Shown: one piece after another, positions 1 through 44,249 of the stretch
Numbering within the stretch: the first letter of the stretch is position 1
How the letters are laid out: each line of letters opens with the position of its first letter
Assembly: GCF_029227915.1 (NCBI RefSeq)
Contig: NC_079878.1
Coordinates: 1,734,001 to 1,798,000 of the forward strand
Length of the DNA: 64,000 nucleotides
Origin: Hydractinia symbiolongicarpus
Lineage: Eukaryota > Cnidaria > Hydrozoa > Anthoathecata > Hydractiniidae
Direction of reading: 5' to 3'
Position numbers and translations under genes: made by a program
The notes under the pieces: model-generated
Told to the model about the DNA's origin: nothing
Databases searched by the model: none
The model's input: only the letters and a program-made list of their open reading frames with translations

Positions 1-859
1 TTCAAATTTGTCTTTACAACATCTGCTGTCATTTTAGCAATAGTATCGTTAAGTTCCTTCAAGAAAGATTGTTTTCGCTTCTTGTTAATTTCCTCTTTTT
101 GGATTGTGTATAAGACCTTTACATACGCTTCAATAATCTTGCTATTAAAATCAATTCTCTTGGTAAGCTATAAATAAATGCAAAGAAATGGAATTTTAGT
201 AATTAATAATAAATAAGGAAGTTAAAACCGTATTTCCTCTTGAAGGAAAGTAATACATCGTTATTTTCTAATAATCACTAAAATGGCTTTACAAATTAGT
301 TTTTGCTACGTACATGAAATTTTTGAAATATTTCTGTTGAATCGACGTACGCTGCAGCTAATTGACAGCCATTCTTCTTCCTTCTTTGTTCAGAATAAAT
401 AATGCTTATCAATTATTTCTACTAATACTCGCGCTTCTACGCCGCCTAGGTAGCGTTAGGAAAATGGTATATTTTTAAATAAATGATACTATGATGGTGA
501 AAGACTTTGTAAGAAAAGGCAAGTTTCGTTAAAATTTCTTAATTTTGCTTTTTAGTGCTGTTTGTCTCATATTATGGAACAAATTTTAACTTACAAGTTT
601 TTTCTTTAATTTTGTGATCGACTGTAACGTGTTCATCGTACGAGTGAACAAGTGTTCCATATAGGTTTTTAAATGACATTTTCTGTTATTTTTAGCTGGC
701 TTCTCTGATCAGATTTGATTCCACTAAACACACTAACCCAACTAAAAATAAATGAAATTTCATGCAGTTACCATCTTTCACCATCAGTAGTCTTTAATAA
801 AACATGCATTGTTAGCATGATTTTCACTCACCGAGAAAGACGATTTTCAAAACAACCAT
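1..859 (-). pseudogene. Outer-left copy of five-exon secreted helical protein gene, broken
   Basis: Exon 1 is 832-859 and its donor GTGAGT is intact. Exon 2 is about 595-741, exon 3 about 314-404, and exon 4 starts at 167 and runs off the window. Three lesions are visible. Exon 2 is one base longer than in the other copies, which shifts the frame and brings TAA codons into frame. About 100 bp of intron 2 is missing against the right outer copy, removing the normal pyrimidine-rich acceptor. The 5' end of exon 3 is lost with it. Exon 3 otherwise lacks the stop codon seen in the right outer copy, so the two outer copies died by different routes. Exon 5 lies beyond the window. The κB/TATA promoter (906-970) is still present. 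Confidence 0.7.
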
Positions 860-899
860 GGTTATTGTAATATTTTACAATGGCTTCAGAAATATTCGG

Positions 900-5669: not shown

Positions 5670-7387
5670 CTATTTCTTCGTTCTAAAATAAAAATGTCGA
5701 AGATCAGCATAAATAGCAGCAATATCTTGAACTATGGTGAGAATTTCGTCATCTTGATTTCTGTTGCATGGAGCACGCTTCGCGTTTGGATAGGCTGGGA
5801 CGAATCGTCTCCATAACGTGACAGTGTCATCACTTCCAAGACATGGGTAAGTCATTAATTTCTGAAAAAAAAATAAAAGAAATCATGCAAATAATCTTAA
5901 GCGATGTTATTAACTCTGTTCAGGCGAGGGAAAGGCGGTTGGTGTTCTCAGAGAACTAGGCTGTTTAACTAGTAGGGTTTTATTGAAAAAAGCAACTTTG
6001 TCTAATGTAAGTATGCGATTATATATTTACAACCTGTAAGTCAATATGGGAAACATTAGGCAAAACAGAAAATTTTTGAATAATAATAACGTCATGATAT
6101 ATATATTTTTTATGTTTCAGAAATAGTTTTTCTATTTTGCCAAAATTATTCCTTTAAAATCATAATTTCCAACAACAAAACAGACGTTGCTTATATCGTC
6201 AACATATCTGCAACATATTGTTGCAGTTTCATATAGAAATAGAAAATCTTGTGAAACTACTTTATTTTCTTTTTATATTGCATTATTGCATTTGCTCTGA
6301 CACATAAAGTCCATTATAAATTTTAGAATCAAGCAAAGGTTCTTCAAAAACATTCCTTACAAAACATATAGAAATGTGCGTTTTTACCTTTCGTTTCAAA
6401 TTTGTCTTTACAACATCTGCTGTCATTTTTGCAATAGTATCGTTAAGTTCCTTCAAGAAAGATTGTTTTCGCTTCTTGTTAGTTTCCTCTATTTGTATTG
6501 TATATAAGACCTTTACATACGCTTTAATGATCTTGCTATTAAAATCAATTCTCTTAGTAAGCTATAAATAAGTGAAAAAATTGGAATTTCAGTAATTGTT
6601 AATAGTTAAGGAAGTTATAGCCGTATTTCCTCTTGAAGGAAAGTAACACATCGTTATTTTCTAATAATCACTAAAATGGTTTTAACAAATCAGTTTTCTC
6701 TACTTACATGAAATTTTTTAAATGTTTCTATTGAATCGACGTACGCTGCAGCAAATTGACAGCCATTCTTCTTCCTTGTTTGGTCAGAATAGATAATGCC
6801 TAACTAAAATATATGTCTTATAGTACAGTACTTTCTCGACTTTTTTCGTTGAGATTACTCACAAGATATATTCTTAAATCACCGTTTCCTTCCATTTATT
6901 AAGTACTGCTACTCGCGTTTGTACCCCTTCTGGACAACATTAAGAGAAAGATATATTTTCAAATAGGTAATAATATGCTGATGAAAAAAGAGCTTGTAGA
7001 AAAAATACTTTCCTTTAAATTTCTTAACTTAGCTTTGTATTGCGGTTTCTCTCATATCATTAAGCTGTTCGCTAAGACATTTACATGCTTAGATAATAAG
7101 AACAAAGTTTAACTTACAAGCTTTTTCTTCAATGTTGTAATCGACCTTAACGTCCTCACAGTATGAGTGAACAAGTGTTCCATATAAGTTTCTAAATGAC
7201 ATTCTCTGTTATTCTCAGCAGCGTCTTTGATCAGACTTGATTCCACTAAACACGCTAACCCAACTAAAAAGAAATGAAATTTCGTGCAGTTACAATCTTT
7301 CACCATCAGTAGTCATTAAAAAAACATGCATTGTTAGCATGATTTTCACTCACCAAGAAAGGCAATTTTCAAAACAGACATGTCCAT
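5670..7387 (-). CDS. Secreted four-helix-type protein, inner-left copy (5 exons)
   Basis: Exons on the minus strand: 7354-7387, 7118-7263, 6708-6803, 6388-6561 and 5670-5861. All introns begin GT and end AG, and the phases are 1-0-0-0. The joined frame is open for about 213 residues. Residues 1-24 form a signal peptide (MDMSVLKIAFL from exon 1, then VGLACLVES from exon 2). The mature part has four cysteines: RECHL in exon 2, NGCQF in exon 3, and YPCLG and APCNR in exon 5. Exons 2, 4 and 5 each hold a long predicted amphipathic helix, the last being near the C-terminus (EILTIVQDIAAIYADLRHF). Eight replacements against about five silent changes separate it from the inner-right copy. A κB/TATA promoter lies 50-110 bases upstream. 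No homologue is recognised. The five-exon 1-0-0-0 plan and helix content resemble class I helical cytokines; that role is inference. Confidence 0.72.
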
Positions 7388-16881: not shown

Positions 16882-16952
16882 ATATATGTCACTACCTTAT
16901 TGGAAATAAAGATATCTATCAGGTCTCGTTTTAGTCTCATTCTATGTACTTA

Positions 16953-18963: not shown

Positions 18964-19150
18964 CTGCATGTCAATCGTATATGTCCCAGCATAGAACGTA
19001 ATGCGTTTTCTTTTCATTATAAGATTAGGCAAGTCTGCATGTGAATCGTATATGTCCCAGCATGGAACGTAATGCGTTCTTTTTTATTATAAGATTAGGC
19101 ATGTCGCCATGTGCATCGTATATGCCCCAGTATAGAACGTAATGCGATTT
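18964..19150. repeat. 71-bp tandem repeat in spacer, about 2.6 copies
   Basis: Copies begin at 18964, 19035 and about 19105. Each carries a CATGTGNATCGTATATG-like core, then CCCAGCATAGAACGTAATGCG and an AT-rich tail with TTATAAGATTAGGCA. The third copy is partial. The period is 70-71 bp. The block sits directly upstream of a TATA box, so it could be an enhancer-like array. That role is inference. Confidence 0.85.
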
Positions 19151-19386: not shown

Positions 19387-20478
19387 AAAAAAAATGAAGC
19401 TTATCTTAGTGTATGAACTAAATATTTTCTAGCCAAGATAGGGTCATTCGTCGGAAACTTTATTACAAAATAATTGATATGGCTTACCAAAATATGACGA
19501 CTTGGACATCAAATAGTTGCGAGGTCATTGGTGTGATACACTTGCGCTGATGATTGCAATTACTTTCAAACGAATGAGGTTGAACAGTTTTAGGTGTAAT
19601 ACAGCACACCAACATTCTTTGAAAAACCTAATCCAAAATAACAGAACATGAGAAGAAATTCATACTGTAGACAACCATCTTGTTGATAGTAGAACAATGT
19701 GATTTTGGTGGTTGATTAACTTCAGTGAGCATATTATTCACTTACTGCATTGTCGCATAAATACAAAAGGTATATATACAACGGATAAGTTTTCAAGTCT
19801 TGTGATTGGTTGATGCAATAAGTTACTCGCTTAATTATTTCTATTGCCTAATCCATGACACATTGGTGTGAGAAAGTTTCGGGTATGCGCATTTTGTTTT
19901 GAAATTTCTCAAATCATTTTTCTTTCGAAAATCTCGATCACGATGTGTCGTGAAAACAACGCATTGAAACGTTCTCAGCCTTAGGAAAGTGTAGCGCGAA
20001 GACAGCGGTGATGTATGGATAGTCGCCTCGGGGAAACGTAGTATGAGACAGTTATGTGTGGATAGTCACGTGTTACGGAGACGTGAGACGGTGCTTAACG
20101 AACCGCACAGCTGCGAAGCCGGTTAATGGGTATTTGAACGCGCGCTCTGAGCAATCTGAGGATATTGCGCAATATATATGATCGTCCGTCCGATGAACAA
20201 AACTTTTCACTTGGTAGTTGAACCCGCGCCCGCTGAACTACGGCCGTAAAGCTATATGTCCATTTAGCGATTTTGTCGCTATTTCGCAAAATATAAGTAA
20301 TAGAATACTCATGAACATGCACATATACAGAAACGACGAGTGTTTCAAACCGTGAAGGTTTCTTGTTTGTTTTTGTTAGCCTTTTTATAAGCCTTATAGT
20401 GATTTTACTTTTCAAATAAAATTAAATTTAGTTATCGAAAACGTTTCTTCTCTCACATGTGGATTAAAAAAGCTTGTT

Positions 20479-20748
20479 ATGAAAAATCAAGCTGAAAATC
20501 AAGCTGAATTGTTTAAGAAACAATGCTATAGCGGATCAACCGTGTCTAATGTAATAAACAATGTGCCTGTTTTTCGATCGCTGATTTTGCATTTCTGTAT
20601 AGAAAATGCAGCAAACACTTGCGACATACAAAAATGTGTTTTATATTTTTTAGGTACAGCAACGAGAAAGATGCTGAAGAAACTCAACTCTGCCGATGAA
20701 AATGTTCAAGAATATTTTTTAAGAGAAAGATGTATTACTAAGACTTAA
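20479..20748 (+). CDS. Hypothetical 89-aa protein, right copy
   Basis: Mirror of 17813-18082 with the same ATG and stop. The two frames point away from the palindrome centre. There is no TATA box of the κB-promoter type upstream. Confidence 0.28.
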   Translation: MKNQAENQAELFKKQCYSGSTVSNVINNVPVFRSLILHFCIENAANTCDIQKCVLYFLGTATRKMLKKLNSADENVQEYFLRERCITKT

Positions 20749-21215
20749 ATAAAACTTAACCTCAATACGGCTTAATATTTTCCCTTGTGTCACGACCTTG
20801 TTGAGAAAAACAACTTGGCGGATTAGTGTGCGTAAAACTTGTTTTAGTAACAAAAGCTTCCGAAGCAATGGCGTAGAACACGCCAAGCATTGTTTTTTGA
20901 TTTTTTTATATTCAACTCTCTGACATAGTAAAAAATTGGCTAGATCCGCTCCTGTAATTTACAATTAATCCTTAATGGTTTTCAATCACAATTCGAAAAA
21001 ACATTAAATAAGGACACTAGCTTTTCGATATCGATTTAGCAATAAAAGTTCATCTACTATTATATCAAGTAATTCTATTCTATTTGATAGGTTTATTAAA
21101 AGTGACGATATTTTTTCAGAACGAAAAATTCGTATTATTTGTATCTCGACGCAATGTTTAATATAGTACATAGAATGAGAGTAAAACGAGACCTGATAGA
21201 TATCTTTATTTCCAA

Positions 21216-21796
21216 CTAGTCGATAAAGCCCGTGGAAAATCCACTAAAGCAGGATAAAAATTTTGATGTTAATGAGATATAAGGATTTAAAGATTTTGCT
21301 GACGTCAGCAATGGCCCCGTCAAAACCGATAAGTTTTTTTTAGAAATTTGTATACCTGTTGCCTCTATCGTATAGATCTTGAAACGCTGATCAAGAAAAT
21401 GTATAGGATTATGTACTTTTGACAAACGATTGCAGAGATATTAGGGTTTAAAGGTTTTTTGATGACGTCATCAACCCACCCATTCCGAAACGGATTTGGG
21501 GACCCAGGTTTGGGAAACTTACCCAAATTGGTCCTAGGTGGTCCCTAGTTACCCACGCGGGAGATGACGTCAGTTATTTCCACCCGTTTTCATGTTATTA
21601 AGCCTTAAATTTAAAAGTGCAATGCAATGGCTTCACTAATCTTAATATACTTTCCTTTGACGTCAATATTGCTTTAACGTCAAAGTTTGCTAATTTACAG
21701 AACAAATTTATAGGCGATGTTTTATAGACTTTATCAACGAAAATTTAATCCGCTTTGCAAAAGTCACAGACAGAAGCTCCGTATTATTATAAGAGA
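21216..21796 (-). mobile_element. Non-autonomous Helitron (581 bp)
   Basis: On the minus strand the element begins TCTCTTATAATAATACGG and ends CGACTAG, with the hairpin GTGGA-TTT-TCCAC about 11 bases before CTAG. It sits exactly between A and T, the Helitron target rule. The left arm has the empty site (CCTTA|TTGG at 16899/16900). No Rep/helicase coding remains. Several TGACGTCA-type motifs occur inside. The insertion postdates the separation of the two arms or has been lost cleanly from the left. Confidence 0.82.
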
Positions 21797-21814
21797 TAAG
21801 GTAGTGACATATAT

Positions 21815-22192
21815 ATGGTACATACTAAATATTTTGTCATTTTTTTGTACTACACATTCTTATTCACTTCCTAGTAATGCCTAAACGTTTCTCAATTGCA
21901 AACAAAAATACAGCAGAGTGCTATCAATTTGTAAATTTGAATTTTCAAAATACTTTCGTAGACACATGTTTCTTAAAATCATGGTATCGGCTTTTTTTGG
22001 TCTAAGAAACCAGAGAATGCCTTCATATCCGTAACTTTTATCTAACTGTGTTTAACAATTATTTGTCTTATTGCTGTCCATTCGTTATTGTATAAGTCTT
22101 GACGCACAAATGAAACACGTTTTGCTTTTCTTACTAAATATGGATCGGATGATTCTCTCAAAAAAGAAGTCCAAGCGTTACATGTGCCTTAA
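21815..22192 (+). pseudogene. Right-arm broken copy of the small secreted-protein candidate
   Basis: Compared with 16486-16881, the leader lacks one base (frameshift to TAG TAA), 29 bases between QN and FVDTCF are missing, and exon 2 has five extra bases after GACGC. The exact positions of the lesions make decay of this copy clear. A Helitron ends 18 bases upstream. Confidence 0.4.
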
Positions 22193-25100
22193 TTTAAACT
22201 AGTATGTCTGTGCTAAAGAAATATTTTAAAAGACCAAAAAATGTCATGTTTGGATTGATTAATACAGGTAAAAACAGCTGGAAAGATATTAAATATGGTG
22301 CAAACTGTTTCTTTAGTTGTATTGCGGTATTGCGATAAAACCTTGCAACATTTAGAGGTCTCGAACATATGGACCTGATGAAAAAGACGTCAAATTTTAG
22401 AAACCCAGTGCTGTGTTGGAACATGTTGCATTTGCTGCAGTAATGTGAACAAATTTTCAATAAATTTAGGATATCCTCTTCTACATATATTAAAATTTCT
22501 TTGAAGGAAAGCATTGCGTCTTTCGGCCAACAAGGTTCACGGGTCACTTTGATTCTGGGTTCTGTGGACTAAAAAATTTGTTTAAAATATTTATAATGTG
22601 TAGCTTTATTTAATTGAAGGGCCCTTCGCTAATAGTAACCTAAGCAAGCAACAAATATCATAAGTTGAGATCTTGCCAAATAACAGTAACCTTAATTCAA
22701 AGACCAATGCAAAGAACGAAAAGAGAAAAAAAAAAATAAGAGGAAACTTAAACTATAAATTTTATAAGAAATTACACACACGTGAACATCTGTGATGGGA
22801 AAATAAATATATTTTGACAACGAGGAGCCATAATCTATTAAAAGACAATGTATATAATGTCTACTTTAACGTGTTTTAGGAATAAGAAATTTGACTTCAT
22901 TCACTTTAAAATAACCTTATTTTACTGATCAGAAAAGAAGTAATTTAAATTATCAATGGAAGAGGTATTGCAGTAGTGATATTCTACATCTCCGACGTTA
23001 AACTCTTGTATATCTGAAGTTTTTGATGCTAAAAAGCTAAACAGTGTAGCAGCTTGTTACACAATGTAACAACCATGTTTAATTATTGTGAACATCATCT
23101 CAATTAAAACTTACGTAGCTGTGTAAGTAGAATGTGATGAATGAACATAATGTACACAAAAGAAGGCAAATCGTTTCGCTAAAGTTCAGGGAAGCTATGA
23201 CATGCAGTTATTCGACCACGTTAATCATTTTAACCCCTGAGAATAAACGGCCTGTGAGTACGTGTCAAGATGAAACATTAACATCTGCTCGTCTTACGGA
23301 AGAGCTTCATATTCATTTTTTTACGAAATGACGATGGGATATGTTGCAAAACAAATTAACTATTATTACTGAAGGCATTGTAGCCCACTTTAGGCAAACC
23401 AAATTTCCCCCAAAAAATATTTTTGTATATTATCTAACAACAACGATGTCCTTCGTTTCTTTTGTACTTCGTTGTAATTAGGACATAGGTATATTGCAAA
23501 TCCAGAAAAGCGGACAGTGTTATAACGTTTTGGGTATGTTTCTTCCTATTATGGTTGGGTGTTCAAAGCATGAAACACACAAACAATAACACACTTGATT
23601 TGCTCGATGTTCACTTAGCGATAGGCTAAATAAATATAAAATACCGGGCGATGGAAACATAGACAATTATAGCAACAAGAACTAAGAACACACGCAGAAA
23701 CTTATAAAAAAGAGAACCGAGTAGAATAAACACAACTGAAAGCACAGAGAACTAAGAAGCAACAATATACACAAACTCACATGATACTCCACAGAAATCA
23801 TCTAACCTAACACTAGCGATACAACAGAGAACTTATATGCGATATGGACATAAAAGGCACGCAGACGATAATCCCAAGGGGAACATGACTGTATTAGATT
23901 TAATTAATCATCTTTTGAGGCACCTCGAAGGAGAGCGCAATGCTTCATGTGTTGTCTACACACGACAGCAACACTTCTACAAAAAATTCTTTTTTGCAGC
24001 TTTAGTTAAAATAAAAACACACCTGTTGTTACCATTTTTTTATTTCGGGAAAATACCGTAAAAGTTTGACAATTATTCGGGACAACAGAATGACTGCTTA
24101 CTACAGGTAAACCATATCGAGCAACCGTGTAATACTTTTTCAAAAAATTCTTTACCTAGATTCATTGTCATTTTAAATGAAAATGCATTGTAAAGGAAAT
24201 TGTCACGAAATAATTGTAGGTAAAAAACCATAGCTAGCTAACTATCATAGGTTTATACTGTTGTCTGTTAACCGTTGTGTATGAACTTAGGATTGTGGCC
24301 AAAGTTTATATTAGCCAACTGGTATTTGACTACTTTTACGTTTAATCTAAATGCAGCTAAAAGTCAGGTAGCCACAACCCAAGTTACGGCTAATTACAAG
24401 TCGGATTGGGCAAGATAACACAAAAAAGAAGGAATACGAATGCCTGGGATAAAAAGCAGTTATAGCAAACTAAATAAAAAACCTTAAAAAAATTGAAACA
24501 ATAACGTTAGCTAGCTAATTAGATGTAGCATGCTCCTTTAAAATCTGCGTTAGGAGCCAATATTTTTACATTGGTTTGTTTTATTTGCACGATTTATACA
24601 TGGCTAAAAAATCAATGAGATACTTATCTTTATCCGTAAAAAGTTAAAAAACAAGTTATTTCAAACAAAAGATTGAAGTAGAAAAAAAGATAAATAAAAA
24701 CAGACATACCAATTCGAACGGCATAGCCTTCATAGCCCCGAATCAAATAGAAAACAATTAAATGCTTGTATATTCATGGAACTCTTTTCAATTCAGAAGG
24801 AAATTATTTAAACTAAAATAACTAATTTTTAATTGTGCAACTTTTAGTAGCATTTGCTACCAAGAAAACGGGTCAGTTGAAAAAAATTTCCTCAGTGAAT
24901 ACCCTTGAAGCAAAACCTTTTCTGCATGCGAAGGATAAAAAAACGTTTGGTGAACATGAAAATTAACAATTTCGCCAGTGTCACCAGTGTCACCAGAAAT
25001 GAAATCAATTCAAAAACTAGTACGCTTACCGTGCAAATTGGCACAGTATAGTAAAGCAGCTTTTACATGAACTTTCATTTTTGAGGGGGAAAATAAAAGT

Positions 25101-25439
25101 TTTTTTTCTGTGCCTTATCTAGCATTTAAAATTGTTTACATGATTTCAGGCGAAATTAAAGCATTTCAGTGTTGATTTCATTTCCGGTTTTTAAATATAT
25201 CACGATTTACCTAAAATGAAACCATTCCAGATGTGTACAAAGCTCTTAGGCTTGTTCGATAAGTTACTGCGTATGTGTACAAAGTTAAAACTCAATGTAA
25301 ACACAAAAATTATTCATAGTGATATAAAACCCCACTTCGTGTAAATCTCATCCTGTGTTTATGTAAAAAACCATGCTGAAAATGCAACAGACATTTATGA
25401 CGTTCGGGCAACATAACGAGAAAAGAGAAGCGTATATAT

Positions 25440-25480
25440 TTATTTATACATCTATATATATATATATATATATTTAAAAA
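25440..25480. repeat. TA microsatellite
   Basis: TATATA run, shorter in the left arm mirror (around 12950-12960), consistent with replication slippage after the arms separated. Confidence 0.7.
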
Positions 25481-26040
25481 TAATATAACTGCTCTGTTAT
25501 ACATTGAGCACTCTGTTTGTAATTGTGTTAAAAATTACTTCGTGTTTATATATATATTTATATATATTTTTTATATTCCTAAATATTAGCATAATTGAAG
25601 TTATTAGACTCAGGTGTATTTATACACTACTACCTAACTTAATTTATACTGAACATAAGTTTGAACCAGTTAAACAGTTAACAAACAATACATAACAAAG
25701 ACATATAAAATGATTGTAGTAAGGTAACAACATATATATTTCTCTCAACAAGGTTATTTTGTTGATAAGCACAAAATCAGGTAAGTATTTCCCAGAATTA
25801 AAACTGCTGAATATTCGTTAAAAAACATACCCATGCACTAAACACAATGATTCATAATTCCAAATTAAAACCGTTTATGAACCTTACATTGCTTATAAGC
25901 GATGTGCTTCTAAAGAAACAAAAGCACTGTCCCCGAAATCGAAAACAAACACCATTGTAAGTTAATAAATTTAAAATGTTTTCGATCAAAATGAAAAACG
26001 GTTAGAAAATATTCACTACATTACTGTCGGCAGTGACAAA

Positions 26041-26165
26041 CGAGTGTACATTTAAATTTCCTCACACATGACATCATTTTTGTAAGAATGTGCATGAGCG
26101 AGGAATAAAGAGTTTTTTAAGGACAATAACACGTGCAGTTTTGCATCCACAGTTTCCTGTTATGT
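26041..26165 (-). promoter_or_regulatory. Composite upstream module, right mirror of copy 5
   Basis: Read on the minus strand it gives ACAGGAAACTGTGG, GCACGTGT and AAAATGATGTCATGTG. Same relation to the orphan promoter at 26972 as on the left. Confidence 0.45.
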
Positions 26166-26971
26166 GGTTTCACTTTATTTGCAGAGTATCAATAGGGAAT
26201 GACAAGATTGCGTGACGTCAGAACGTTGTGAAAAATTATTGACAAATTCATTTTCCTTCACGTTTACTAAAATATTTCTCGTTGCTTTTTTGACATAATC
26301 TGTTAGTAGCAGCTCAGCCCTCTTTCGTTTTATTGTGTTGTAATATTAATGCATCAAATTCTGTCGATCTGAAAATTGAAAAGTAAAATTAACGATCGTA
26401 TGATCTTCTGTCGCAAAAAAGAAGAAGCAAACAAGATGAGTAGTGTAACGATATGTAAATTATTCAAAAAAAAAATCTTAGTCAGCGTTAAAACATCTTT
26501 GTCTTACACTTCCTACATTATTGAAACCTTTAACTATGTCATTCAAAACAGCAACTTTTGTACATGTCGTTCATGATTGCTTACGCTTTGACAATCACTT
26601 GTGCGTTAATTAATACCAATTAAATTTTTTGATCCATAAGTTGTAGATCCTTTTAAACGAACCCTTTTTTTTTAATCGAATTTTGTTAGAATATCGATAT
26701 ATGGGCAACGACCAAGCAATGAATCTGTTGCGCTCTTTTGTTATAATTGTCTAATATGAAACGTGGCAACATACAGCAACTGTTTACCGCAGTATATTTC
26801 CGGGAAATGAAGAATTTATGAACTGATTTAAATACCTATCAAATTTGCAATAATTACGTCATCATTACAAGAATGCCTCAAGAATAAATGTAGAAGGAAA
26901 CAAAGAATTTCCAGAATGTATAAATTTTTATTGTTTATCAGGAAATACTGCAATTTTTTGACATCAAGTAT

Positions 26972-27012
26972 GGAATATCCCTTTTAACCGTATCATATAA
27001 TAGTGAAACTGT
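26972..27012 (+). promoter_or_regulatory. Orphan kappaB promoter, third right unit
   Basis: GGAATATCCC (26972-26981), ACCGTATCATATAA and GTGAAACTG. Downstream there is no TATAAAA and no exon 1, as in the left arm mirror, so the loss predates the palindrome or has been homogenised. Confidence 0.45.
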
Positions 27013-29422
27013 AAACCTCACATTGTGAAAACATCTAGTGATGGTCATTTTGATCATAAAAGAGGAAAAAAGTGTCCTGACAACACATTTATCCTGTTTT
27101 GATAAAGTCGATGTCTCTCTCAGTTGTAAACTGAGAAATTAGACAATAGTTGCAAAATCTCTCACAGTCTCCTTGCTTTACAGCATAAATAATCTCACGC
27201 TTTTGGTAATATTTACAAAATGCGACTACACTGTGTCAAAAGCTCCCATGAAAACATATTTTTTCTTTTATCTCTCTATCTTATTATGTTTTTCTTTTTT
27301 TTTATTCACTATTTTAATTTTTGCCAAAGGTACTATATAACCCATTATTCAAAGTTATAGAGCCTATGCTGCAACAACTTACAGAAGTAAACGAATAGGT
27401 AACCATAACTGACGGCGTAAGTGATAAAAGTCGTTGTTAAATTATCTCTAATTCGTTATGAATGGATAAACGGATTTTGCGACATTAATAAGAGTTTGCC
27501 CTATTTTCCTTACAGCCAGTGTTAATTGTGTGAGGATTAGCCCAAAAATTGCTCCCAGAAACTCTGAAAGAGACCGCATATCAACAATAAAAACTCGGGG
27601 AGATTATTTTAAGCGGGATTGTAGCTTGCCTAAAAACATATTATGCTTATAAATTTTATAGATGCTTCTGCTTATGGGCGACTTAAAATAATTTAGTTGT
27701 AGCGTTTTAAGAGATGCTACTTTCTTCTTTGATCAGTATGAGTTAACAGCTTTATCTTTTTATCGGCGGTGTTAATGCCTTGATCTATTTCTTGTGATAT
27801 ATGCTGTCTCGTGAGTAGCAGCACTTACCCCAAACTGTTTCCTGTTTTCTTTATTTACAGTAATTATTATTTAGTTTCGCAGAATTTAATAAGTGGTAAG
27901 TAGGAGGTAAATATATCCTCCTAATAAGTTCTGAGAAATGTTTGGTGATACCAACTAAATAAGTCCGGCAAAGGTCATCTCTGTATTAATGATATTTAAT
28001 AATATTTCTTAGTTTGATATCTTAACGTAATGTAAATGGCAAATGCGATATATTTTTACTGCACACGAATATTAAACAAATACACAAATCTAAATTTTAT
28101 AACTTCAATCATCAAGATTTGGCGCTCTGGATTTGTTTCTTTTGCGTTCATAAAAAAGATCTAAAAGTTCTTTTGGGGAATTGTTAGATTTGGTTGATAA
28201 GGTTTTTAAAGGAAATTATTTGTGTTTTAAAACATTGTATCATAGAAATATTTGCTTTTTTGGTTTTATGTTTGATATTGTAAGCTGTTGGACTTAAATT
28301 TGCGCAACTAGATTGTAGTGTAGCTAGTTAAATATAAAATCCAAATCAATCAACCTTAGCTAGTTGAACACTAGAAATAAATGTAAACCATCAACTTAAC
28401 CCCAATAGGTCTAAAATAAATGCCATTTTTCATTTTTTACCAAAAGTTCATAATTTGGCTATTTGACAAGTTAATTTGAGAAATAATAAAGGTAGAAAAA
28501 CTATATGTGCATTACTTCGCTGGAAAAACAAAATTGTCTGTAAACTTACCTTGTCTTCATGTTGGTATGTCTATTCAGGCTGTGTATTTTGCGGAATGGA
28601 AATGCATATTGAAATAGGCTAATTAAATTGATTTGGCAGATTCAAAGAAAATCGTTATTTTTAAGCATGAAACGGAAATGGGTTAGTTGCTTTTCCTGCG
28701 GAAGTAAAACATTCCTTTGCATAATGCAATGCAATAGGTTTTCTTTGAGAGGCTCGTACTACAGTTTAAAAAACAGAGCAGAAGTTTAGAATGTTTGTAA
28801 TATTTTGCAAAATAAAACAGAGCATAAAAACATTGTTTATAATTTTTAAATCGTTGTTTTTTATGGACACCTAAATTACTATATAAATGTTACACTGATA
28901 GATGTTTTCAAGAGGCAGGCATTTCTTTTGACTTCGGAAGGCAATTAAAGAAAGCTAAAAAACGCCAAGAAAATTGATTTTCCAAGAAGTTGTTCTTTAG
29001 ATAATTAAGAGATTTGGATTGATGAAGAAGTTTTTTCTAATGACTTTTTCTTCTCTTCCTTCTTACTTTTCCATCGAGAGTTGCAAAAAGTGACCGTGGC
29101 AAGGCCAATGAAATTTATGATATTATATTTTCCTTTCCACGTTAAATTTATTGACAAATACACCAGTACACCCAGTAGTTCACCATTATTCTTCTTAAAG
29201 AAAAAAACAGCTGCATATCCGTTGAAATAGAACACTTCACAAATAATTCACCAGTCGATAAAATTTATTTTGTTTTTAACCGCTGTGCTTATAAAGAAAC
29301 AGAAAGAATGTCTCCCAAAAATCCAAAGCAAATCATTCTGCGTTTTTACATTATTATGTTTGCCATTAAAACTGCGAATAATTAAGAATATTTATTGCGT
29401 TACTGTAGGTGCATGAGAAAAC

Positions 29423-29534
29423 AACTGTACATTTAAATTTCCTCTCACGTAACATCATTTTTGTAAGAATGTGCATGTGCGAGGCATTAAAAGACAATAA
29501 CATATGCAGTTTCCCATCAACTGTTTCCTGTTTG
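29423..29534 (-). promoter_or_regulatory. Composite upstream module, right mirror of copy 3
   Basis: Mirror of 8296-8410, about 0.8 kb upstream of the inner-right κB promoter. The E-box is CATATG here, and the CRE-like part is TGATGTTA. Confidence 0.45.
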
Positions 29535-30337
29535 TCAGTTGACTTCCTTTGTTAGGCTTATTAGGGAATTATAAAATACGCATGCACGTCAAGCGAGATT
29601 ACGAAATTGACGAATTGATGTAGTATTTTAGAAGAAATTGAGTCTTAACCAGTGTTAATACATCTTACCCTTAAGCTTCTTATATCATACCGAAACTTAT
29701 TGGAAATGTCTCTTAATAATTATTTTAACTGAAAAAGAAACATTTGCACATTCTTTTGTATATTCTTTCGTTGTGAATACTTTTTTCTCATTGGTAAATT
29801 TTTTTAACTAAATCGTAATTCTAATAAATAGTATGAACATAGTTATTAACATTAAATATAAATACAAATGCCGAATATTTTCACATATGGAATCTAAGTA
29901 TTAAAACTAGTTTTTCAGCTTATGATATGGGAGAATGAAAAAAAGAATTAACAAAAGAACATAGCAGTTTGCTCATGAAAAACTTAATTATGTGGGCAAC
30001 AGCGAATAGGTAAATTTGTTGTGAGTGCTCCTGCGTTGTGATCTATGCAATTACACTCATGGGCGCTTTTTGGTTACAGTTGTATAATATGAAACGTGGC
30101 AGGATACAGCAACTGTTTACCGCAGTATATTTCCGGGAAATAGAAATTTGTGAACTCATTTAAATATCTTTCAAATTTTCAATGCTGACAGATAATTACA
30201 GCGAAAGTGAAGATTATTACTTACGTCCTTATTAAAATAATGCGTTAACAAAAAAAGTTCTAAACAAACAAAAGCTTTCCAGAAAGTATAAGTTTACATT
30301 TGTCCGGAAATACTGAATTTTTTTTTAAATCAAGTAT

Positions 30338-30403
30338 GGAATATCCCTTTCAACCGTATTATATAACACTGAAACTGTCAATTAAAATTAGCACCTATAA
30401 AAA
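30338..30403 (+). promoter_or_regulatory. kappaB/TATA promoter of inner-right copy
   Basis: GGAATATCCC at 30338-30347, ACCGTATTATATAA, CACTGAAACTGTCAAT (IRF-half-site-like GAAAC), and TATAAAAA at 30396-30403. The exon 1 ATG is at 30445, implying a 5' leader of only about 20 bases. Confidence 0.6.
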
Positions 30404-30444
30404 CCCAGCTGTAAATTTCTGATGCCATTGTAAAAAAGAAAACA

Positions 30445-32161
30445 ATGGACATGTCTGTTTTGAAAATTGCCTTTCTTGGTGAGTGAAAATCATGCTAACA
30501 ATGCATGTTTTTTTAATGACTACTGATGGTGAAAGATTGTAACTGCACGAAATTTCATTTCTTTTTAGTTGGGTTAGTGTGTTTAGTGGAATCAAGTCTG
30601 ATCAAAGACGCTGCTCAGAATAACAGAGAATGTCATTTAGAAACTTATATGGAACACTTGTTCACTCATACTGTGAGGACGTTAAGGTCGATTACAACAT
30701 TGAAGAAAAAGCTTGTAAGTTAAACTTTGTTCTTATTATCTAAGCATGGAAATGTCTTAGCGAACAGCTTAATGATATGAGAGAAACAGCAATAAAAAGC
30801 TAAGTTAAGAAATTTAAAGGAAAGTTTTTTTCTCCAAGCTCTTTTTTCTTCAGCATATTATTACCTATTTGAAAATATATCTTTCTCTTAATGCTGTCCA
30901 GAAGAGGGAACAAACGCGAGTAGCAGTACTTAAAAAATGGAAGGAAAGGGTGATTTAAGAAAATATCTTGTGGGTAATCTCAACGAAAAAAGTCGAGAAA
31001 GCACTGTACTATATGACATATATTTTAGTTAAGCATTATCTATTCTGACCAAAGAAGGAAGAAGAATGGCTGTCAATTTGCTGCAGCGTACGTCGACTCA
31101 ATAGAAACATTTAAAAAATTTCATGTAAGTAGAAAAAACTGATTTGTTAAAACCATTTTAGTAATTATTAGAAAATAACGATGTACTACTTTCCTTCAAG
31201 AGGAAATACGGCTATAACTTCCTTAACTATTAACAATTACTGAAATTCCAATTTTTTCATTTATTTATAGCTTACTAAGAGAATTGATTTTAATAGCAAG
31301 ATCATTAAAGCGTATGTAGAGGTCTTATATACAATCCAAAAAGAGGAAACTAACAAGAAGCGAAAACAATCTTTCTTGAAGGAACTTAACGATACTATTG
31401 CGAAAATGACAGCAGATGTTGTAAAGACAAATTTGAAACGAAAGGTAAAAACGCACGTTCCTATATGTTTTGTGAGGAATGTTTTTGAAGAACCTTTGCT
31501 TGATTTTAAAATTTATAATGGACTTTATGTGTCAGAGCAAATGCAATAATGCAATATAAAAAGAAAATTAAGTAGTTTCACAAGATTTTCTATTGCTATA
31601 TGAAACTGCAACAATATGTTGCAGATATGTTGACGATATAAGCAACGTCTGTTTTGTTGTTGGAAATTATGATTTTAAAGGAATAATTTGGCAAAATAGA
31701 AAAACTATTTCTGAAACATAAAAAGTATATATCATGACGTTATTATTATTCAAAAATTTTCTGTTTTGCCTAATGTTCCCCATATTGACTTACAGGTTGT
31801 AAATATATAATCGCATACTTACATTAGACAAAGTTGCTTTTTTTTTAATAAAACCCTACTAGTTAAACAGCCTAGTTCTCTGAGAACACCAACCGCCTTT
31901 CCCTCGCCTGAATAGAGTTAATAACATCGCTTAAGATTATTTGCATGATTTCTTTTATTTTTTTTTCAGAAATTAATGACTTACCCATGTCTTGGAAGTG
32001 ATGACACTGTCACGTTATGGAGACGATTCGTCCCAGCCTATCCGAACGCGAAGCCTGCTCCATGCAACAGAAATCAAGATGACGAAATTCTTACCATAGT
32101 TCAAGATATTGCTGCGATTTATTCTGATCTTCGACATTTTTATTTTAGAACGAAGAAATAG
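30445..32161 (+). CDS. Secreted four-helix-type protein, inner-right copy (5 exons)
   Basis: Exons 30445-30478, 30569-30714, 31029-31124, 31271-31444 and 31970-32161. Donors are GTGAGT, GTAAGT, GTAAGT and GTAAAA; every acceptor ends in AG, with TTTTTTTTCAG before exon 5. Phases are 1-0-0-0, with coding lengths of 34, 146, 96, 174 and 192 bases including the stop, giving 213 residues. The signal peptide spans exons 1 and 2. Mature cysteines are in RECHL, NGCQF, YPCLG and APCNR, so two disulfides are possible. Helix-rich segments: ETYMEHLFTHTVRTLRSI (exon 2), AAAYVDSIETFKKF (exon 3), KIIKAYVEVLYTIQKEE and LKELNDTIAKMTADVV (exon 4), and a C-terminal helix in exon 5. No transmembrane segment follows the leader. 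The family is not recognised. The gene layout is that of class I helical cytokines (inference). Confidence 0.75.
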
Positions 32162-33100
32162 AATCAAAAATAGGGACAAATTATTATACAGAATTTATTT
32201 ATTCGTTATGTGATTTCAAATGCAACATTTTTTAATCGATGGTCTGTACACGTATTTCTTTACTTTCGCCTATGTAGAAATTCTTTCACTTATATTTTAA
32301 TAAAAAAAACATTGTTGCCGCATAATTGCCGACATATTAAATTTATATTATGTTGTTGTATTAGTATGTTTTTTTGTATTTATTAATATGTATACAACGT
32401 ACTGCCGAATGCTTAATGTAAATAGTAGGCATATCTACCTCACTAACACTTCATTTACTAGGTATGTGAGTGTGAATGTAGAAAATTTGGTTTGACAGTC
32501 CTGATAGCGCTTTCTTTAGGTAACAGCCACCTTAAAAATAACAGATTCTTACACCGCTGTTTATACATTCTGCATAGTTTTTATGCAAGATTAATATTGG
32601 AACACGCTAACAGCCGTAGTATCAACCTGTCAAATATCTTCATTCTTTACAAATTATGTTCCCACAGAGTATACTTTATAACTCAAAATAAGATTTAGCT
32701 AAGCTACAACTAGATAGGGAAAATTGCGAGAAAAGGGGTCAAATGGAGTTAAAAAAGTTAATTTAGACAAGAAAGCCATCGACAAACAATTTCGGTTGAA
32801 GTGACTCGATGTTGCTATGTTAAAGACTTCAATTTATAGAAACAATCGTGGACATGTTAAAAGATATGCTTATAAAAGACGCATCACACTACATACTTTA
32901 TTCAAGGCAATTAACGGGGCACAATATTATTGGTCACGAAATTAACGGTTAATAATTTGCAAGGTATATAAAGGAGGACAATATCAACCACGCACTGATC
33001 AGCATTAGTTCTAATAGACACAATATTTCCAACAGAAGTGTTACTAATAATTATAACTTGAACAACAGCTTGCCAAATGCTTTAAAAATCATGGATCCAG

Positions 33101-33235
33101 TTAGACTTGTACGTTAGACTTCCTTCTTTCGCTGATGTAACAACATTTGCAAATAAACTGTCTGCATCCTTTATTCCTTTTTAAACGTCGATCAAATCGT
33201 TGCTTTTTACCGTTAGCCCTTCTTTCTATAAGCAT
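33101..33235 (-). CDS. Short basic cysteine-containing ORF (44 aa), right copy
   Basis: Mirror of the 4595-4729 ORF with the same length. The C-terminal part reads CKCCYISERRKS where the left copy has CICCYISDTKKS. Function unknown; it may be the end of a longer spliced gene or chance. Confidence 0.2.
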   Translation of the reverse strand: MLIERRANGKKQRFDRRLKRNKGCRQFICKCCYISERRKSNVQV

Positions 33236-34330
33236 CTGTTGTGAACTTTTTATTTATTATGCTTTAATAAAATATCTTCCACAATGTTTGTCGTCGTTGA
33301 TATACCGAGAAGGATAGTTATTAAGGTATAAAATTGTTTTTAATACTTATTGACTTTTAAATAACTTTCCATGACCTTTTTTATTTTTATTAATTTTTCT
33401 CAACAACCTACTGAAACATTTAGGAACATTAATATATTCAGATAAATGGCGCACCATCTTTGAAAACGATTAATTTATGTTAGACATGGTGCTAAATGAT
33501 GATTCAGTTTTGATCGATGGACTTAAATCTTTAAACATAATATGTTACTTTCTAGCATTAAGGAAATGTAATATTTAGTAGTTTTTTTGACGAAATAAGT
33601 CCTATCAGTAGTTTTACTTTCTGCTTTCCCTATAAAGTTATATAAAACACTATCTACATTTTGCTAAAGTTTTAACTTACAATATATACAGTGTACCTGT
33701 CATAGTTTGAGTTGCCTAAATCATAATCCTTCTAGTATAAGTGTAAATTCAGCATTAAGACTTAAAGGAAATAACTTCCTTGAACTTCTATTGTTGCTGG
33801 TCAATGAGTTACTCATTTCATTATAACCGACTGCAAGAGTAGGTCTAAAACGTATGAGCTAGCGTTTTTTGCATATCGAACATTTAAAAAGTCAAATCGT
33901 GAATTACACAGGAGTGTTATTAAATGATTTCCCAGTCATCATGAAGTAGCTGCAATAACTCACTTTGCAGTTTTTCTTGAAAGAGTAAACCAGAAAAGTT
34001 TTCCTTCATAGAATATTTTAAAGTACTTTTTAGAATTATTTGGTTGTAGTTTTCCTTCTTTAAAATATGTTTTTGTCAATAAACAACTAATCAAAGGTGA
34101 AGTATGACAATAAAATAAAAAAAAGCAGAGATACCGTAAAAATAAGAAAAAAGTGGCGCTTTAAAACATAACAAAGGTCAATCAAAGCCTAAGCTGTTTG
34201 CTTAAAGTTACCACCATCTCGAATTAAATCTTGCTCTAGCCATTACACTTAAAAAAGCATGTACATTTACATAACAGCTTCCCTTATGCTTATTTTATAT
34301 TATTGCATTACTGTCGTTGCTTAACAAAAC

Positions 34331-34453
34331 AAATACATGTATAACTTCACAACCCTTTGACATCATCTTTGCACAAAGCGCTTACGCGAAGCATTAAGGA
34401 TTTTAAAGGCACATTAACACGTGCAGTTTCTTATCAACAATTTCCTGTTATGT
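34331..34453 (-). promoter_or_regulatory. Composite upstream module, right mirror of copy 2
   Basis: Minus-strand reading CATAACAGGAAATTGTTG, GCACGTGT and AAGATGATGTCA. It mirrors 3390-3512. Confidence 0.45.
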
Positions 34454-34857
34454 TAGTTGATTTTATTTGCTGAATTGTATGTTATCTGAGCTGCTGATAT
34501 ATTGTTTACTTCAGATCAACAAGCAGTGGAATTATGAAGCATGCACGAAACTGTTAAATAAACGCTTTTAAATGTCGTATTTTAAAATTAGGTGAAATGA
34601 AACAAGAAACAAAATAATTCTTCTTTTTTCATGCAATATTTTATAGGACGGTGTCTCCAAATTAGTAAAATTTAGCATCTACGAAAGTATTCGTCTTCTA
34701 AAGTTACGTTACATTTACGTGCACACCCTTACATCGTTTTCGGTTTGAGTGAGTTTCTGGGTCGCTATTTATCAATACAATACAAAAAAGTTTATTTTAA
34801 TGAACGAAAACATGAATTTGTTTTGAATTGTATTTAGGCTAAAGAAGAAACCGATAT

Positions 34858-34902
34858 GATAAAACGTAGAAAGTGTTGAATAAACACTTCCTACGTTTTA
34901 TC
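34858..34902. repeat. Near-perfect hairpin
   Basis: GATAAAACGTAG-AAAGTGTT pairs with AACACTT-CCTACGTTTTATC around a short GAATA-type loop, giving a stem of about 20 bp. The left-arm mirror (about 2947-2995) and the third relative (about 39110-39160) have degenerate versions. Confidence 0.6.
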
Positions 34903-35914
34903 AAAAATTATATTTATCAAGAAACGTTCCTCGGCGTTTAGTTTATGAAAAATGGAAACTCTAAGTTCAGTTTCTGCGCATAAAAAAACCTTTTTTGCAT
35001 TTATTTTTTAGACTTTTACAAACAAAAGAATTTTCCCTGATTAATGTGCTGGTATCTTAATTCTTATATGAATGTTATATGCTTTATGAAAAGTAGATAA
35101 AGGGGCTTTAGCAAGGAAAATACATTGCCAATGCATTTACATTCACAATTATATGTGTTTAAATGAAAACATAGTAGCAGCGTTTCACGGTATTAAATTT
35201 TTGGGAAACAGAGACATTTGACGTTACTTAAATACATTCCCAATCTACGGCGTAGAACATTGCCATCAAAGTAAAAAATGTGGGCGACTTATTTATGATT
35301 ATTGCAATAATCTAATTTAAATTTTATATAAGAGATATATTCTAATTGTTTTCAGTCCGAAAACCTTTTCCATCTATTATAATTCTGTTTCATAATAATA
35401 AAGTTGTCATTTAACTAACATTAACCAAAACATACCTAAATATCTTTATTTAATATAAAATAAATATGACAGTAATTACAAGTATTGATTTCTGTACACT
35501 TTACAGTGTTAAAGTGTCCAACCAAAAACATTTGGAATGTGAAGATAAAATATTCTGGAAGACTGTTGACTTTACATACTGTAGATAATTAAGATATTTG
35601 GATTTAGTCAGAAATTATTTTCTTTCTTTCTCTTCGAGCGGGAGTTGCAAAAACTGTCTGTGTTGAGGGTAATAAAATATATATTATTATGTCTTTCTGG
35701 TCAAGTTTAATTTATTGAAAAATACCCATTTTGAAGCTTACTCCGCAGAATTAAGGAAGTAAATATCTGCATATCTGTTGAAAAAGAATCCAAAAATACA
35801 TTGATGAAACTAATTGTCTCCAGATAATTCAAAGATTGCAAATTATTAAATGTTTTCCATTAAAATTGCAGATGGTTAGAAAATATTTTCTGCTTTGTTA
35901 GTGTGTGACACTCA

Positions 35915-36033
35915 AGTGTACATCCAAATTCCCCCACACTTGACATCAGTTTTGCAAAAAGTACATTAGCAAAGGATGAAGTTTTGAAGGACAACAACAC
36001 GTGCAGTTTTGAATCAACTGTTTCCTGTTATGC
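35915..36033 (-). promoter_or_regulatory. Composite upstream module, right mirror of copy 1
   Basis: Minus-strand reading CATAACAGGAAACAGTTG, GCACGTGT and AACTGATGTCAAGTG, about 0.85 kb upstream of the outer-right promoter. Confidence 0.5.
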
Positions 36034-36436
36034 CAGTTGATTTCCGTTGTAAAATAAGACCAGGGAATTACAAAATATGAATGACGCGAGACTAAGTAAT
36101 TTAAGAAGTTATGTAGTATATTAAAAGAAACTGAGTCTTAGTCAGCGCTAATTCATCTTACCGTTATGCTTCCTATATCATATCGAAACTTGTTGGGAAG
36201 ATGTCTTATCATGTTATTTGAAAAAGAAACATTTGTACATTCTTTTGTTGCGGTAATTTTTGGGCTCGTAATTTTTTTTTAACAATTAATACAAATCTAG
36301 AAATATATTCAATATAAATAAATATCTCAACAATTTGTCAGCTCATCATAAAGAAAAAAGAAAATAGACAACAGGTCGTATATTTACTTAAAAAATAAAT
36401 CATAAAAAATTTAAAAACGAAAAGACGAAAAGACTC

Positions 36437-36682
36437 TCAAAATGCAATCACTGAAAAAAAAATTAAAGATACTGCAGAGCCTAACAACCTAATTTTTAAT
36501 TCAATCTTATTGCAATCTGCGCCATGCTTCGAAAAAGCATTGTTAAGTGGAAAACGAGTAATGAATTGTTGGAAGCGCTCCTGTGTTGCGACCCCATTTA
36601 TGGGCGCTCTTTTGTCACAATTGTCTAATATAAAAAGTGGCAACATACGGCAACTGATTACCGCAGTATATTTCCAGGACAA
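36437..36682 (-). other. Mirror of the 81-codon open frame
   Basis: Right-arm counterpart of 1155-1400, differing by a few residues (for example SR for SC and ITR for STR). The same caveats apply: non-ATG opening and no recognisable domain. Confidence 0.15.
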
Positions 36683-36869
36683 TTTATGAACTCATTTAAA
36701 TACCTATTAAAGTTTCAATGGTGGAAGATAATTACAGCGAAAGTGAAGATTGTTACTAAAGTCATTATTAAAATAATGCGTTAACAAAAAAAATTGAAAA
36801 CAAACAAAAACTTTCCAGAAAATTTAAATTGTTTGTCAGGAAATACTGAAATTTCTTTAAATCAAGTAT

Positions 36870-36935
36870 GGAATATCCCTTTCAACCGTATTATATAATA
36901 CTGAAACTGTCAATCAAAATTCGCACCTATAAAAT
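36870..36935 (+). promoter_or_regulatory. kappaB/TATA promoter of outer-right copy
   Basis: GGAATATCCC at 36870-36879, ACCGTATTATATAA, ACTGAAACTGTCAAT, and TATAAAAT at about 36929-36936. Promoter elements are intact although the gene downstream is broken. Confidence 0.55.
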
Positions 36936-36980
36936 CCCAACAGTATATTTCTGAAGCCATTGTAAAAGATTACAATAACC

Positions 36981-38718
36981 ATGGTTGTTTTAAAAATCGT
37001 CTTTCTCGGTGATTGAAAGTCATGCTAACAATGCATGTGTTATTAATGACTACTGATGGTGAAAGATTGTAACTGCACGAAATTTCATTTCTTTTTAGTT
37101 GGGTTAGTGTGTTTAGTGGAATCAAGTCTGATCAAAGACGCTGCTGAGAATAACAGAGAATGTCATTTAGAAACTTATATGGAACACTTGTTCACTCATA
37201 CTGTGAGGACGTTAAGGTCGATTACAACATTGAAGAAAAAGCTTGTAAGTTAAACTTTGTTCCATATTATGAGACAAACAGCACTAAAAAGCAAAATTAA
37301 GAAGTTTTAACGAAACTTGCCTTTTCTTACAAAGTCTTTCACCAGCATAGTATCATTTATTTAAAAATAAAACATTTTCCTAACGCTACCTAGGCAGCGT
37401 AGAAGCGCGAGTATTAGTAGAAGTAATTGATAAATAGCAGGAAGTTTAAGATTATACCTTAGGGTGGATGTCAACGAAAAAACTCGAGAAAGCACTGTAC
37501 TATGATATATATTTTAGTTAGGCATTATCTATTCTGAATAAAGAAGGAAGAGGAATGGCTGTCAATTAGCTGCAGCGTACGTCGATTCAACAGAAATATT
37601 TCAAAAATTTCATGTACGTAGCAAAAACTAATTTGTAAAGCCATTTTAGTGATTATTAGAAAATAACGATGTATTACTTTCCTTCAAGAGGAAATACGGT
37701 TTTAACTTCCTTATTTATTATCAATTACTAAAATTCCATTTCTTTGCATTTATTTATAGCTTACCAAGAGAATTGATTTTAATAGCAAGATTATTAAAGC
37801 GTATGTAGAGGTCTTATATACAATCCAAAAAGAGGAAATTAACAAGAAGCGAAAACAATCTTTCTTGAAGGAACCTAACGATACTATTGCCAAAATGACA
37901 GCAGATGTTGTAAAGACAAATTTGAAACGAAAGGTAAGAATAGACAATTCTGTTCTTTTTATAAGTAAATGTTTCAGAAGGACCATTATTTAATTGCTAA
38001 CAATTTTAATCAACCTTATGCCTCAAAGTTGATGCTATAAAATATAAAAAGGACATAAATAAAATGTCTTACCTTTCAGAAAAAAAATAGTTTCACAGGA
38101 TTTTCTACTTCTATATGAAACTACAATAACATGTTGCAGGTATGTTGACGATATAAGCAATGTCTATCTTATCGGTTGAAATTATGATTTCAAGGGAACT
38201 AAAATCTATATCTGAAAAATAAAAATAAAAAATTATAATACCGTTGTTATTTATAAGATCTTGTGGTTACCTAATGTTCCCCCTAATAATTTACAGGTTG
38301 TTTCAGGACAGAATTGTAAGTAAAAGCAATGATACGTAACGTTTACATGACGCAAAGTTCATACATATTCGTATACTTACATTAGGCAAAATTAATTTAT
38401 TTCGTAAGACCCTAATAGTTTAATAGCATCAGTTCTCTGAGAACACCAGCCGCCTTCTGCCAGCCTGAATAAAGTTAATATCATCACTAAAGATTATTAG
38501 TTTGATTTATTTCATCATTTTTTCAGAAACTAATGACCTACCCATGTCTTGGAAGTGATGACACTGTCACATTATGGAGACGATTCGTCCCAGCCTATCC
38601 AAACGCGAAGCCTGCTCCATGCAACAGAAATCAAGATGACGAAATTCTTACCATAGTTCAAGATATTGCTGCGATTTATTCTGATCTTCGACATTTTTAT
38701 TTTAGAACAAAGAAATAG
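36981..38718 (+). pseudogene. Outer-right copy of secreted four-helix-type protein gene, likely truncated
   Basis: Exons 36981-37008, 37099-37244, 37518-37613, 37760-37933 and 38527-38718, all with the same lengths as the inner copies except that exon 1 starts at a later ATG (28 bases). Exon 3 has TAA at its eighth codon (GAA TAA where the outer-left copy has GAA CAA), which would end the protein after about 65 residues. The intron 1 donor is GTGATT instead of GTGAGT, and exon 4 has a proline where the inner copies have leucine (KEPND). Exon 2 matches the inner-right copy with one mismatch over about 220 bp including intron flanks, unlike the surrounding introns. That points to gene conversion into an otherwise decaying copy. 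Confidence 0.65.
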
Positions 38719-44230: not shown

Positions 44231-44249
44231 ATTGCAGTATTGACAGAAG

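What the first reader, a model, noticed from the sequence alone, without database searches (positions are those of the whole stretch)
30445..32161. Cryptic five-exon secreted protein family with class I helical-cytokine gene architecture
Joining five short exons gives a 213-residue secreted protein with four mature cysteines and helical segments in exons 2 to 5. Exon 1 encodes only the start of the leader, and the intron phases are 1-0-0-0. Established knowledge: growth hormone, erythropoietin, IL-6 and G-CSF genes share exactly this five-exon, 1-0-0-0 plan, with helix A in exon 2 and helix D in exon 5. I recognise no sequence homologue. Whether this is descent, convergence or coincidence is open. 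A cytokine-like family in a non-bilaterian would be new to me.
Basis: partly seen in the sequence, partly recalled or inferred. Interest (0 to 1): 0.88.

Follow-up and report, generated by a model that had tools for sequence, protein, structure and literature searches.

The report
Orphan secreted gene, cytokine-like exon plan
This looks like a real, recently duplicated animal gene for a small secreted helical protein with no relatives found so far, whose exon layout resembles that of vertebrate cytokine genes, but nothing yet shows that it is a cytokine.

Summary
Five GT-AG exons at 30445-32161 (+) join to a 642-nt frame: 213 residues, intron phases 1-0-0-0, a split leader, four cysteines after it. 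It is one of four copies: C is also intact (96% identical protein); B and D are broken. A/C and B/D are mirror pairs of a ~19-kb inverted duplication. Between A and B, exons 2-5 differ at 20 of 608 sites, introns at 226 of 1017. All 5 exon-5 differences are synonymous (P=0.00075). Exon 2 identity is due to gene conversion. I take it as a real gene; no transcript was available.

The cytokine reading is plausible, not shown. No sequence relative was found. AlphaFold gives only helices at very low confidence (pLDDT 43 and 52), so the fold test is inconclusive. The phase pattern alone is weak evidence. The host, hence 'non-bilaterian', is unconfirmed; the own-genome search did not complete in 12 attempts. 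I put a cytokine-like secreted ligand at 0.35, and common descent with vertebrate helical cytokines at 0.12.

The parts
30396..30401 (+). TATA box (TATAAA), 49 nt before the ATG; TATAAAA is present at the aligned place in all four copies
30445..30478 (+). Copy A exon 1: start of the leader; intron 1 is phase 1
30569..30714 (+). Copy A exon 2: rest of the leader, Cys33, predicted helix 35-49 and start of the next
31029..31124 (+). Copy A exon 3: Cys75, predicted helix about 68/73-90
31271..31444 (+). Copy A exon 4: two predicted helices, about 93/96-117 and 121-149
31970..32161 (+). Copy A exon 5 with stop: Cys157 and Cys182, long loop, last helix about 184-210; all 5 differences from copy B are synonymous
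32299..32304 (+). Candidate polyadenylation signal AATAAA
36975..38718 (+). Copy B: older tandem paralogue, broken by an in-frame TAA in exon 3; its exon 2 was overwritten by A-type sequence
5670..7387 (-). Copy C: intact mirror copy of A, 213 aa, 96% identical protein
1..865 (-). Copy D: mirror copy of B, cut by the window start; one-base insertion in exon 2 and loss of the exon 3 acceptor
26730..27015 (+). Third promoter-like block, 73% identical to 30063-30381 upstream of A; tblastn found no coding remnant after it. Mirror copy at 11398-11690 (-)

Best explanation
A real protein-coding gene of an unidentified animal, in a small, recently duplicated cluster. It encodes a secreted, cationic, helical protein of about 193 residues after the leader. 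The mechanism that I think most likely is that of an extracellular signalling ligand: the leader sends it out of the cell, cysteine pairs (33-75 and 157-182 would be the natural guess) tie the crossover loops of a compact helical bundle, and the surfaces of the first and last helices bind receptors, as in helical cytokines. Shown by sequence: exons, phases, leader-like start, cysteines, copies. Weakly shown: purifying selection (exon 5). Predicted only: helices. Inferred: expression, disulfides, bundle topology, receptor binding.
For: Open five-exon frame with GT-AG introns and phases 1-0-0-0; TATA box, stop and AATAAA in proper order; second intact copy C. A:B dN/dS 0.365 (Fisher P=0.017), B:C 0.42 (P=0.029), A:C 0.37 (P=0.09, not significant). 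A:B exon 5: 5 of 5 differences synonymous, P=0.00075; exons 2+4+5 together 8 of 11, P=0.0013. Predicted helices in both models fall at 35-49, 51-64/66, 68/73-90, 93/96-117, 121-149, 161-170 and 184-210/212, which can be read as A (exons 2-3), crossover with a minor helix (exon 3), B and C with a short turn (exon 4), long loop, D (exon 5). Size, split leader and exon plan match what I recall for IL-6 and growth hormone genes. A class I type receptor without a known ligand (CRLF3) is reported from cnidarians to mammals (PMC6797617, passages).
Against: No sequence relative at all, so nothing ties it to a cytokine. Model confidence is too low to read a topology. The predicted links 65-67/72 and 91-92/95 are short, so an up-down-up-down bundle of five helices fits as well as up-up-down-down. 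Phase-1 introns are the commonest kind in genes with signal peptides (PMC1626468, passages), which makes half of the pattern cheap, and PMC2654155 itself warns that fold-and-gene-structure searches for helical cytokines give many false positives (passages). All four differences that A and B show in exons 2-4 outside synonymous sites cannot be pooled as selection: exon 3 of B has 7 replacement changes, 1 stop and 1 synonymous change, and exon 2 of D shows 12 replacement to 8 synonymous changes (P=0.15). Part of the exon identity is gene conversion. Two of four copies are broken.
Confidence: 0.35

Rival explanations
1. A lineage-specific cationic defence protein: secreted, lysine- and arginine-rich, amphipathic helices that bind microbial surfaces or nucleic acid. 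The cytokine-like intron plan is coincidence.
For: pI 9.7 and net charge about +15 over 193 residues; several predicted helices are amphipathic (shuffle P 0.012 for 35-66, 0.045 for 121-149, 0.047 for 73-90). Duplication, gene conversion and loss of copies are common in defence genes (general knowledge). The cytokine IL-26 is itself described as cationic and amphipathic (PMC6379347, abstract start in the listing), so the two roles can overlap.
Against: Amphipathicity is not significant for 96-117, 161-170 and 184-210 (P 0.21-0.25). Too large for a classic antimicrobial peptide; exon 5 is conserved at protein level.
Confidence: 0.25
2. Another kind of secreted helical protein (carrier, matrix, gland or venom component) of one lineage; the exon plan is coincidence.
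For: No homologue in any search made. The closest structural alignments of the model are three-helix arrangements over residues 72-193 of the mature chain, which only shows that it is helical. With many orphan secreted genes per genome, a few will show phases 1-0-0-0 by chance: with recalled phase frequencies I estimate 2-3% of five-exon genes.
Against: Size, leader split, helix placement and phases all agree with one known gene plan at once.
Confidence: 0.2
3. Not a functional gene now: a decaying duplicate cluster, or a frame kept open only by recent origin and gene conversion.
For: B and D are broken; B's exon 2 was overwritten (19 of 19 informative sites A-like); synonymous A:B changes in exons 2-5 are far fewer (9) than expected at the intron rate (34.7), so exon identity is not due to protein selection alone.
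Against: A and C are both intact after 14 coding differences; exon 5 A:B changes are all synonymous; splice sites of A and C are intact.
Confidence: 0.08

Closest known systems
Class I helical cytokine genes (IL-6, G-CSF, growth hormone/prolactin, erythropoietin)
   Same: Five coding exons, first exon only the start of the leader, phases 1-0-0-0, about 200 residues, four cysteines, helices expected in exons 2 to 5 (vertebrate details recalled; this gene). From memory human IL-6 has 212 residues and coding exons of about 19/191/114/147/168 nt, against 34/146/96/174/192 here.
   Different: No sequence match; bundle topology not established; cysteine positions match no family that I can recall; host and receptor unknown.
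Type III interferon / IL-10 family genes
   Same: Helical cytokines with a five-exon plan; IFN-lambda-2/3 carry a short first exon that splits a codon after its first base, lie as inverted near-identical copies, and share only coding and regulatory DNA with IFN-lambda-1 (PMC2654155, passages), much like A/C versus B here.
   Different: In those genes the remaining introns are four, not three, and the five-exon members have no split codon (same passages); no sequence similarity.
Lineage-restricted (orphan) secreted protein families
   Same: Secreted, small, helical, tandem-duplicated, no homologue found.
   Different: The exon plan and helix placement follow a known ligand gene plan, which most orphans would not.

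Membership tests
Class I helical cytokines | Secreted single domain of about 150-200 residues with N-terminal leader | tested here: met
   213 aa with hydrophobic residues about 4-18; cleavage not tested
Class I helical cytokines | Five coding exons with phases 1-0-0-0, leader split by intron 1 (plan of the IL-6/GH/EPO type, recalled) | tested here: met
   intact second copy with the same plan; no transcript
Class I helical cytokines | All-helical fold | tested here: inconclusive
   helices only, apart from single bridge residues, in both models, but pLDDT 42.8 and 52.1
Class I helical cytokines | Up-up-down-down four-helix bundle with two long crossovers | tested here: inconclusive
Class I helical cytokines | Sequence match to a curated cytokine family | tested here: not met
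   Pfam-A: two families only, E 0.055 (DUF5638) and 0.077 (Speriolin_C), both below cut-off; distant cytokines often fail this test too (general knowledge)
Class I helical cytokines | Binding to a class I cytokine receptor and JAK-STAT signalling | not testable with these tools
   needs experiment; receptor search in the own genome was not possible
Orphan secreted gene family | Intact secreted frame in several copies, no homologue outside | tested here: inconclusive
   copies; no homologue, but these searches hold few or no spliced animal genes, and sister species were not searched

The most novel reading that the evidence does not exclude
A genuine helical cytokine gene in an early-branching animal that shares descent with the vertebrate IL-6/growth-hormone type, recognisable only by gene structure and fold, and possibly the missing ligand of an ancient class I receptor such as CRLF3.
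Probability: 0.12. Interest if true: 0.9.

Novelty: new member of a known kind. Interest (0 to 1): 0.45.

Why it matters
If it is a helical cytokine in a non-bilaterian, the ligand side of class I cytokine signalling would be far older than sequence searches show: a 2026 survey found IL-6 only in vertebrates and traced IL6R to molluscs (PMC13203501, passages), while CRLF3 is reported from cnidarians to mammals without a known ligand (PMC6797617, passages). Gene structure would then be a way to find such ligands where sequence fails. If not, it is one more orphan secreted gene, and a good example of how a recalled exon plan can mislead. Either way the candidate is precise enough to test.

Tried and rejected
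Homologues. The spliced protein found no match with E <= 10 among 124 candidates in the 5.8-billion-protein collection. Exon 5 alone (61 residues) had no candidate sharing three words. The control is mixed: the same collection does hold a contiguous ORF of this very assembly (63066-63677, contig of 35,952,230 bases), but it did not return the exon 5 ORF, so it cannot be relied on for spliced or short animal genes. Scans of viral and prokaryote contigs used two short peptide patterns each; 106 and 163 stretches matched a pattern and none encodes a relative. PDB sequence searches: best E 0.11 and 0.12, adenosine kinase, taken as chance.

Selection. I first took exon/intron identity as selection alone; rejected, since B exon 2 is A-like at 19 of 19 informative sites while intron 2 is D-like at 50 of 53, and synonymous changes in exons are far below the intron rate.

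STAT site. TTCCGGGAA lies upstream of A (30131), mirrored at C (7693) and at the third promoter block (26798, 11614), and is changed in B and D. TTCNNNGAA occurs 34 times in the window against 26.7 expected (5 of 100 shuffles reach 34), so I do not count it.

Host.

Literature. Nine searches listed no paper whose title or shown abstract reports a helical cytokine of a cnidarian or other non-bilaterian; only open-licence PMC papers are held, and searches 17 and 32 alone demanded all their terms together with 'cnidaria'.

Full report
Gene model. All four introns begin with GT and end with AG; donors are GTGAGT, GTAAGT, GTAAGT and GTAAAA. The frame is 642 nt, 213 residues, phases 1-0-0-0. A TATA box lies at 30396 and an AATAAA at 32299. 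The start is hydrophobic; after a leader of about 20 residues (assumed) 193 residues remain, pI 9.7, net charge about +15, one N-glycosylation motif at Asn132.

Copies. tblastn of the protein on the window finds four copies; the next best hit has E 0.68 (first 40 rows printed). Copy C (7387 down to 5670, minus strand) is intact, 213 residues, 96% identical. Copy B (36975-38718, plus) has an in-frame TAA in exon 3 and its first ATG shifted by two codons. Copy D (865 down to the window start, minus) has a one-base insertion in exon 2 and lacks the exon 3 acceptor. Self-comparison explains the layout: bases 1-18779 are an inverted copy of 19782-37926, in pieces of 91-98% identity, so C mirrors A and D mirrors B; A and B are an older tandem pair (80.6%). 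Where D still has CAA at the place of B's stop, the stop in B arose after the inverted duplication or was not passed to D (alignment).

Is it coding? For: 0 gap columns in exons against 143 in introns between A and B; 20 of 608 differences in exons 2-5 against 226 of 1017 in introns; identity falls sharply at the 3' ends of exons 2 and 4 and rises at exon 5. dN/dS is 0.365 for A:B (P=0.017), 0.42 for B:C (P=0.029), 0.37 for A:C (P=0.09). With base-change rates taken from the introns, exon 5 has 5 of 5 synonymous A:B differences (P=0.00075), exon 4 3 of 5 (P=0.11), exons 2+4+5 8 of 11 (P=0.0013), exons 2-5 9 of 20 (P=0.04). Against a simple selection story: introns 1 and 3 are 95.6% and 90.3% identical and exon 1 only 73.5%; exon 3 of B carries 7 replacements, a stop and 1 synonymous change; exon 2 of D has 12 replacements and 8 synonymous changes (P=0.15); A:C differences are 6 synonymous and 8 replacement. 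Synonymous A:B changes (9) are far below the number expected at the intron rate (34.7), so something besides protein selection keeps the exons alike. Gene conversion is visible: of sites where A and C agree and D differs, B follows A at 19 of 19 in exon 2 and 4 of 5 in intron 1, but follows D at 33 of 43 upstream, 8 of 8 in exon 1, 50 of 53 in intron 2, 5 of 6 in exon 3, 12 of 13 in intron 3 and 3 of 5 in exon 4. My conclusion is that A and C are real genes or were until very recently, with transcripts as the missing proof.

What kind of protein? Sequence searches found nothing: no protein with E <= 10, no Pfam family above cut-off, nothing below E 0.1 in the PDB, no relative in viral or prokaryote contigs, nothing for exon 5 alone. 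These nulls are weak for an animal gene, because the collections hold few or no spliced animal proteins. AlphaFold was run twice, on the spliced A and C proteins whole and without leader, only two near-identical sequences each. Both models are helical (pLDDT 42.8 and 52.1, pTM 0.31 and 0.40). In full-length numbering the helices of the second are about 35-49, 51-64, 68-90, 93-117, 121-149, 161-170 and 184-212. This can be read as a class I bundle: A in exons 2-3, a crossover with a minor helix in exon 3, B and C with a short turn in exon 4, a long loop tied by Cys157/Cys182, D in exon 5. It can equally be read as an up-down bundle of five helices, since the links at 65-67 and 91-92 are short. 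Fold searches settle nothing.

How strong is the exon plan? [quoted passage not shown] With recalled phase frequencies I estimate 2-3% of five-exon genes to show 1-0-0-0, and a genome has many orphan secreted genes, so the pattern alone is expected somewhere. PMC2654155 (passages) used gene structure to support helical-cytokine assignments and also states that such methods give many false positives. The agreement of size, split leader, cysteines and helix placement raises the odds, not to certainty.

Mechanism. Most likely, in my view, a secreted signalling ligand of helical-bundle type (0.35); next a cationic defence protein (0.25), another secreted helical protein (0.20), or no function (0.08). 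Shown: gene structure and copies. Supported: some protein-level constraint. Predicted: helices. Inferred: secretion, disulfides, receptor binding.

Relation to known systems. I do not file it as a class I cytokine: sequence membership was tested and not met, topology is undecided, receptor use untested. It may still work like one. A 2026 survey reports IL-6 only in vertebrates and IL6R from molluscs on; it says JAK was not detected in Coelenterata in its own data while citing work in which JAK and STAT co-occur in Cnidaria (PMC13203501, passages). CRLF3 is reported from cnidarians to mammals, absent in sponges, placozoans and ctenophores, endogenous ligand unknown (PMC6797617, passages). Sea squirt has two class I receptors (PMC1963337, passages).

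Limits. The host was not identified; the window lies on a contig of 35,952,230 bases and its other ORFs are transposon-like where they match anything. The own-genome search failed to answer 12 times. The inverted duplication could in part be an assembly fold-back of two haplotypes; A and C might then be alleles.

Noticed in passing
1-37926: Inverted duplication with arms of about 19 kb (1-18779 and 19782-37926), pieces 91-98% identical, around a spacer of about 1 kb that holds a 70-bp tandem repeat (18967-19146). Real palindrome or assembly fold-back of haplotypes is open.
   Followed up: partly
37009-37244: Gene-conversion tract in copy B covering exon 2 and most of intron 1, with exon 1 and intron 2 left unconverted.
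   Followed up: yes
25889-27015 (mirror 11398-12529): Third copy of the upstream region of the genes (two blocks, about 73% identical) with no detectable coding part behind it: probably a lost third tandem gene.
   Followed up: partly
   Followed up: no
63063-63677 (+): ORF with a P2RX7_C domain (Pfam E 8.2e-24), 60 homologues with E <= 1e-5 among 156 candidates, 4 member sequences in its own cluster: looks like a mobile or multicopy gene.
   Followed up: partly
43934-44299 (-) and 62638-62850 (+): Piece of a ubiquitin carboxyl-terminal hydrolase domain (UCH, E 1.8e-10) at the first place; a similar stretch (LQLKRFACNKGLVSKVCSPVTSYPGT) is visible in the ORF list at the second, not scanned.
   Followed up: no
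30131-30139: Palindromic TTCCGGGAA (STAT-like) about 310 nt upstream of A's ATG, kept in C and in the third block, changed in B and D; the motif class is not enriched in the window (34 found, 26.7 expected).
   Followed up: partly
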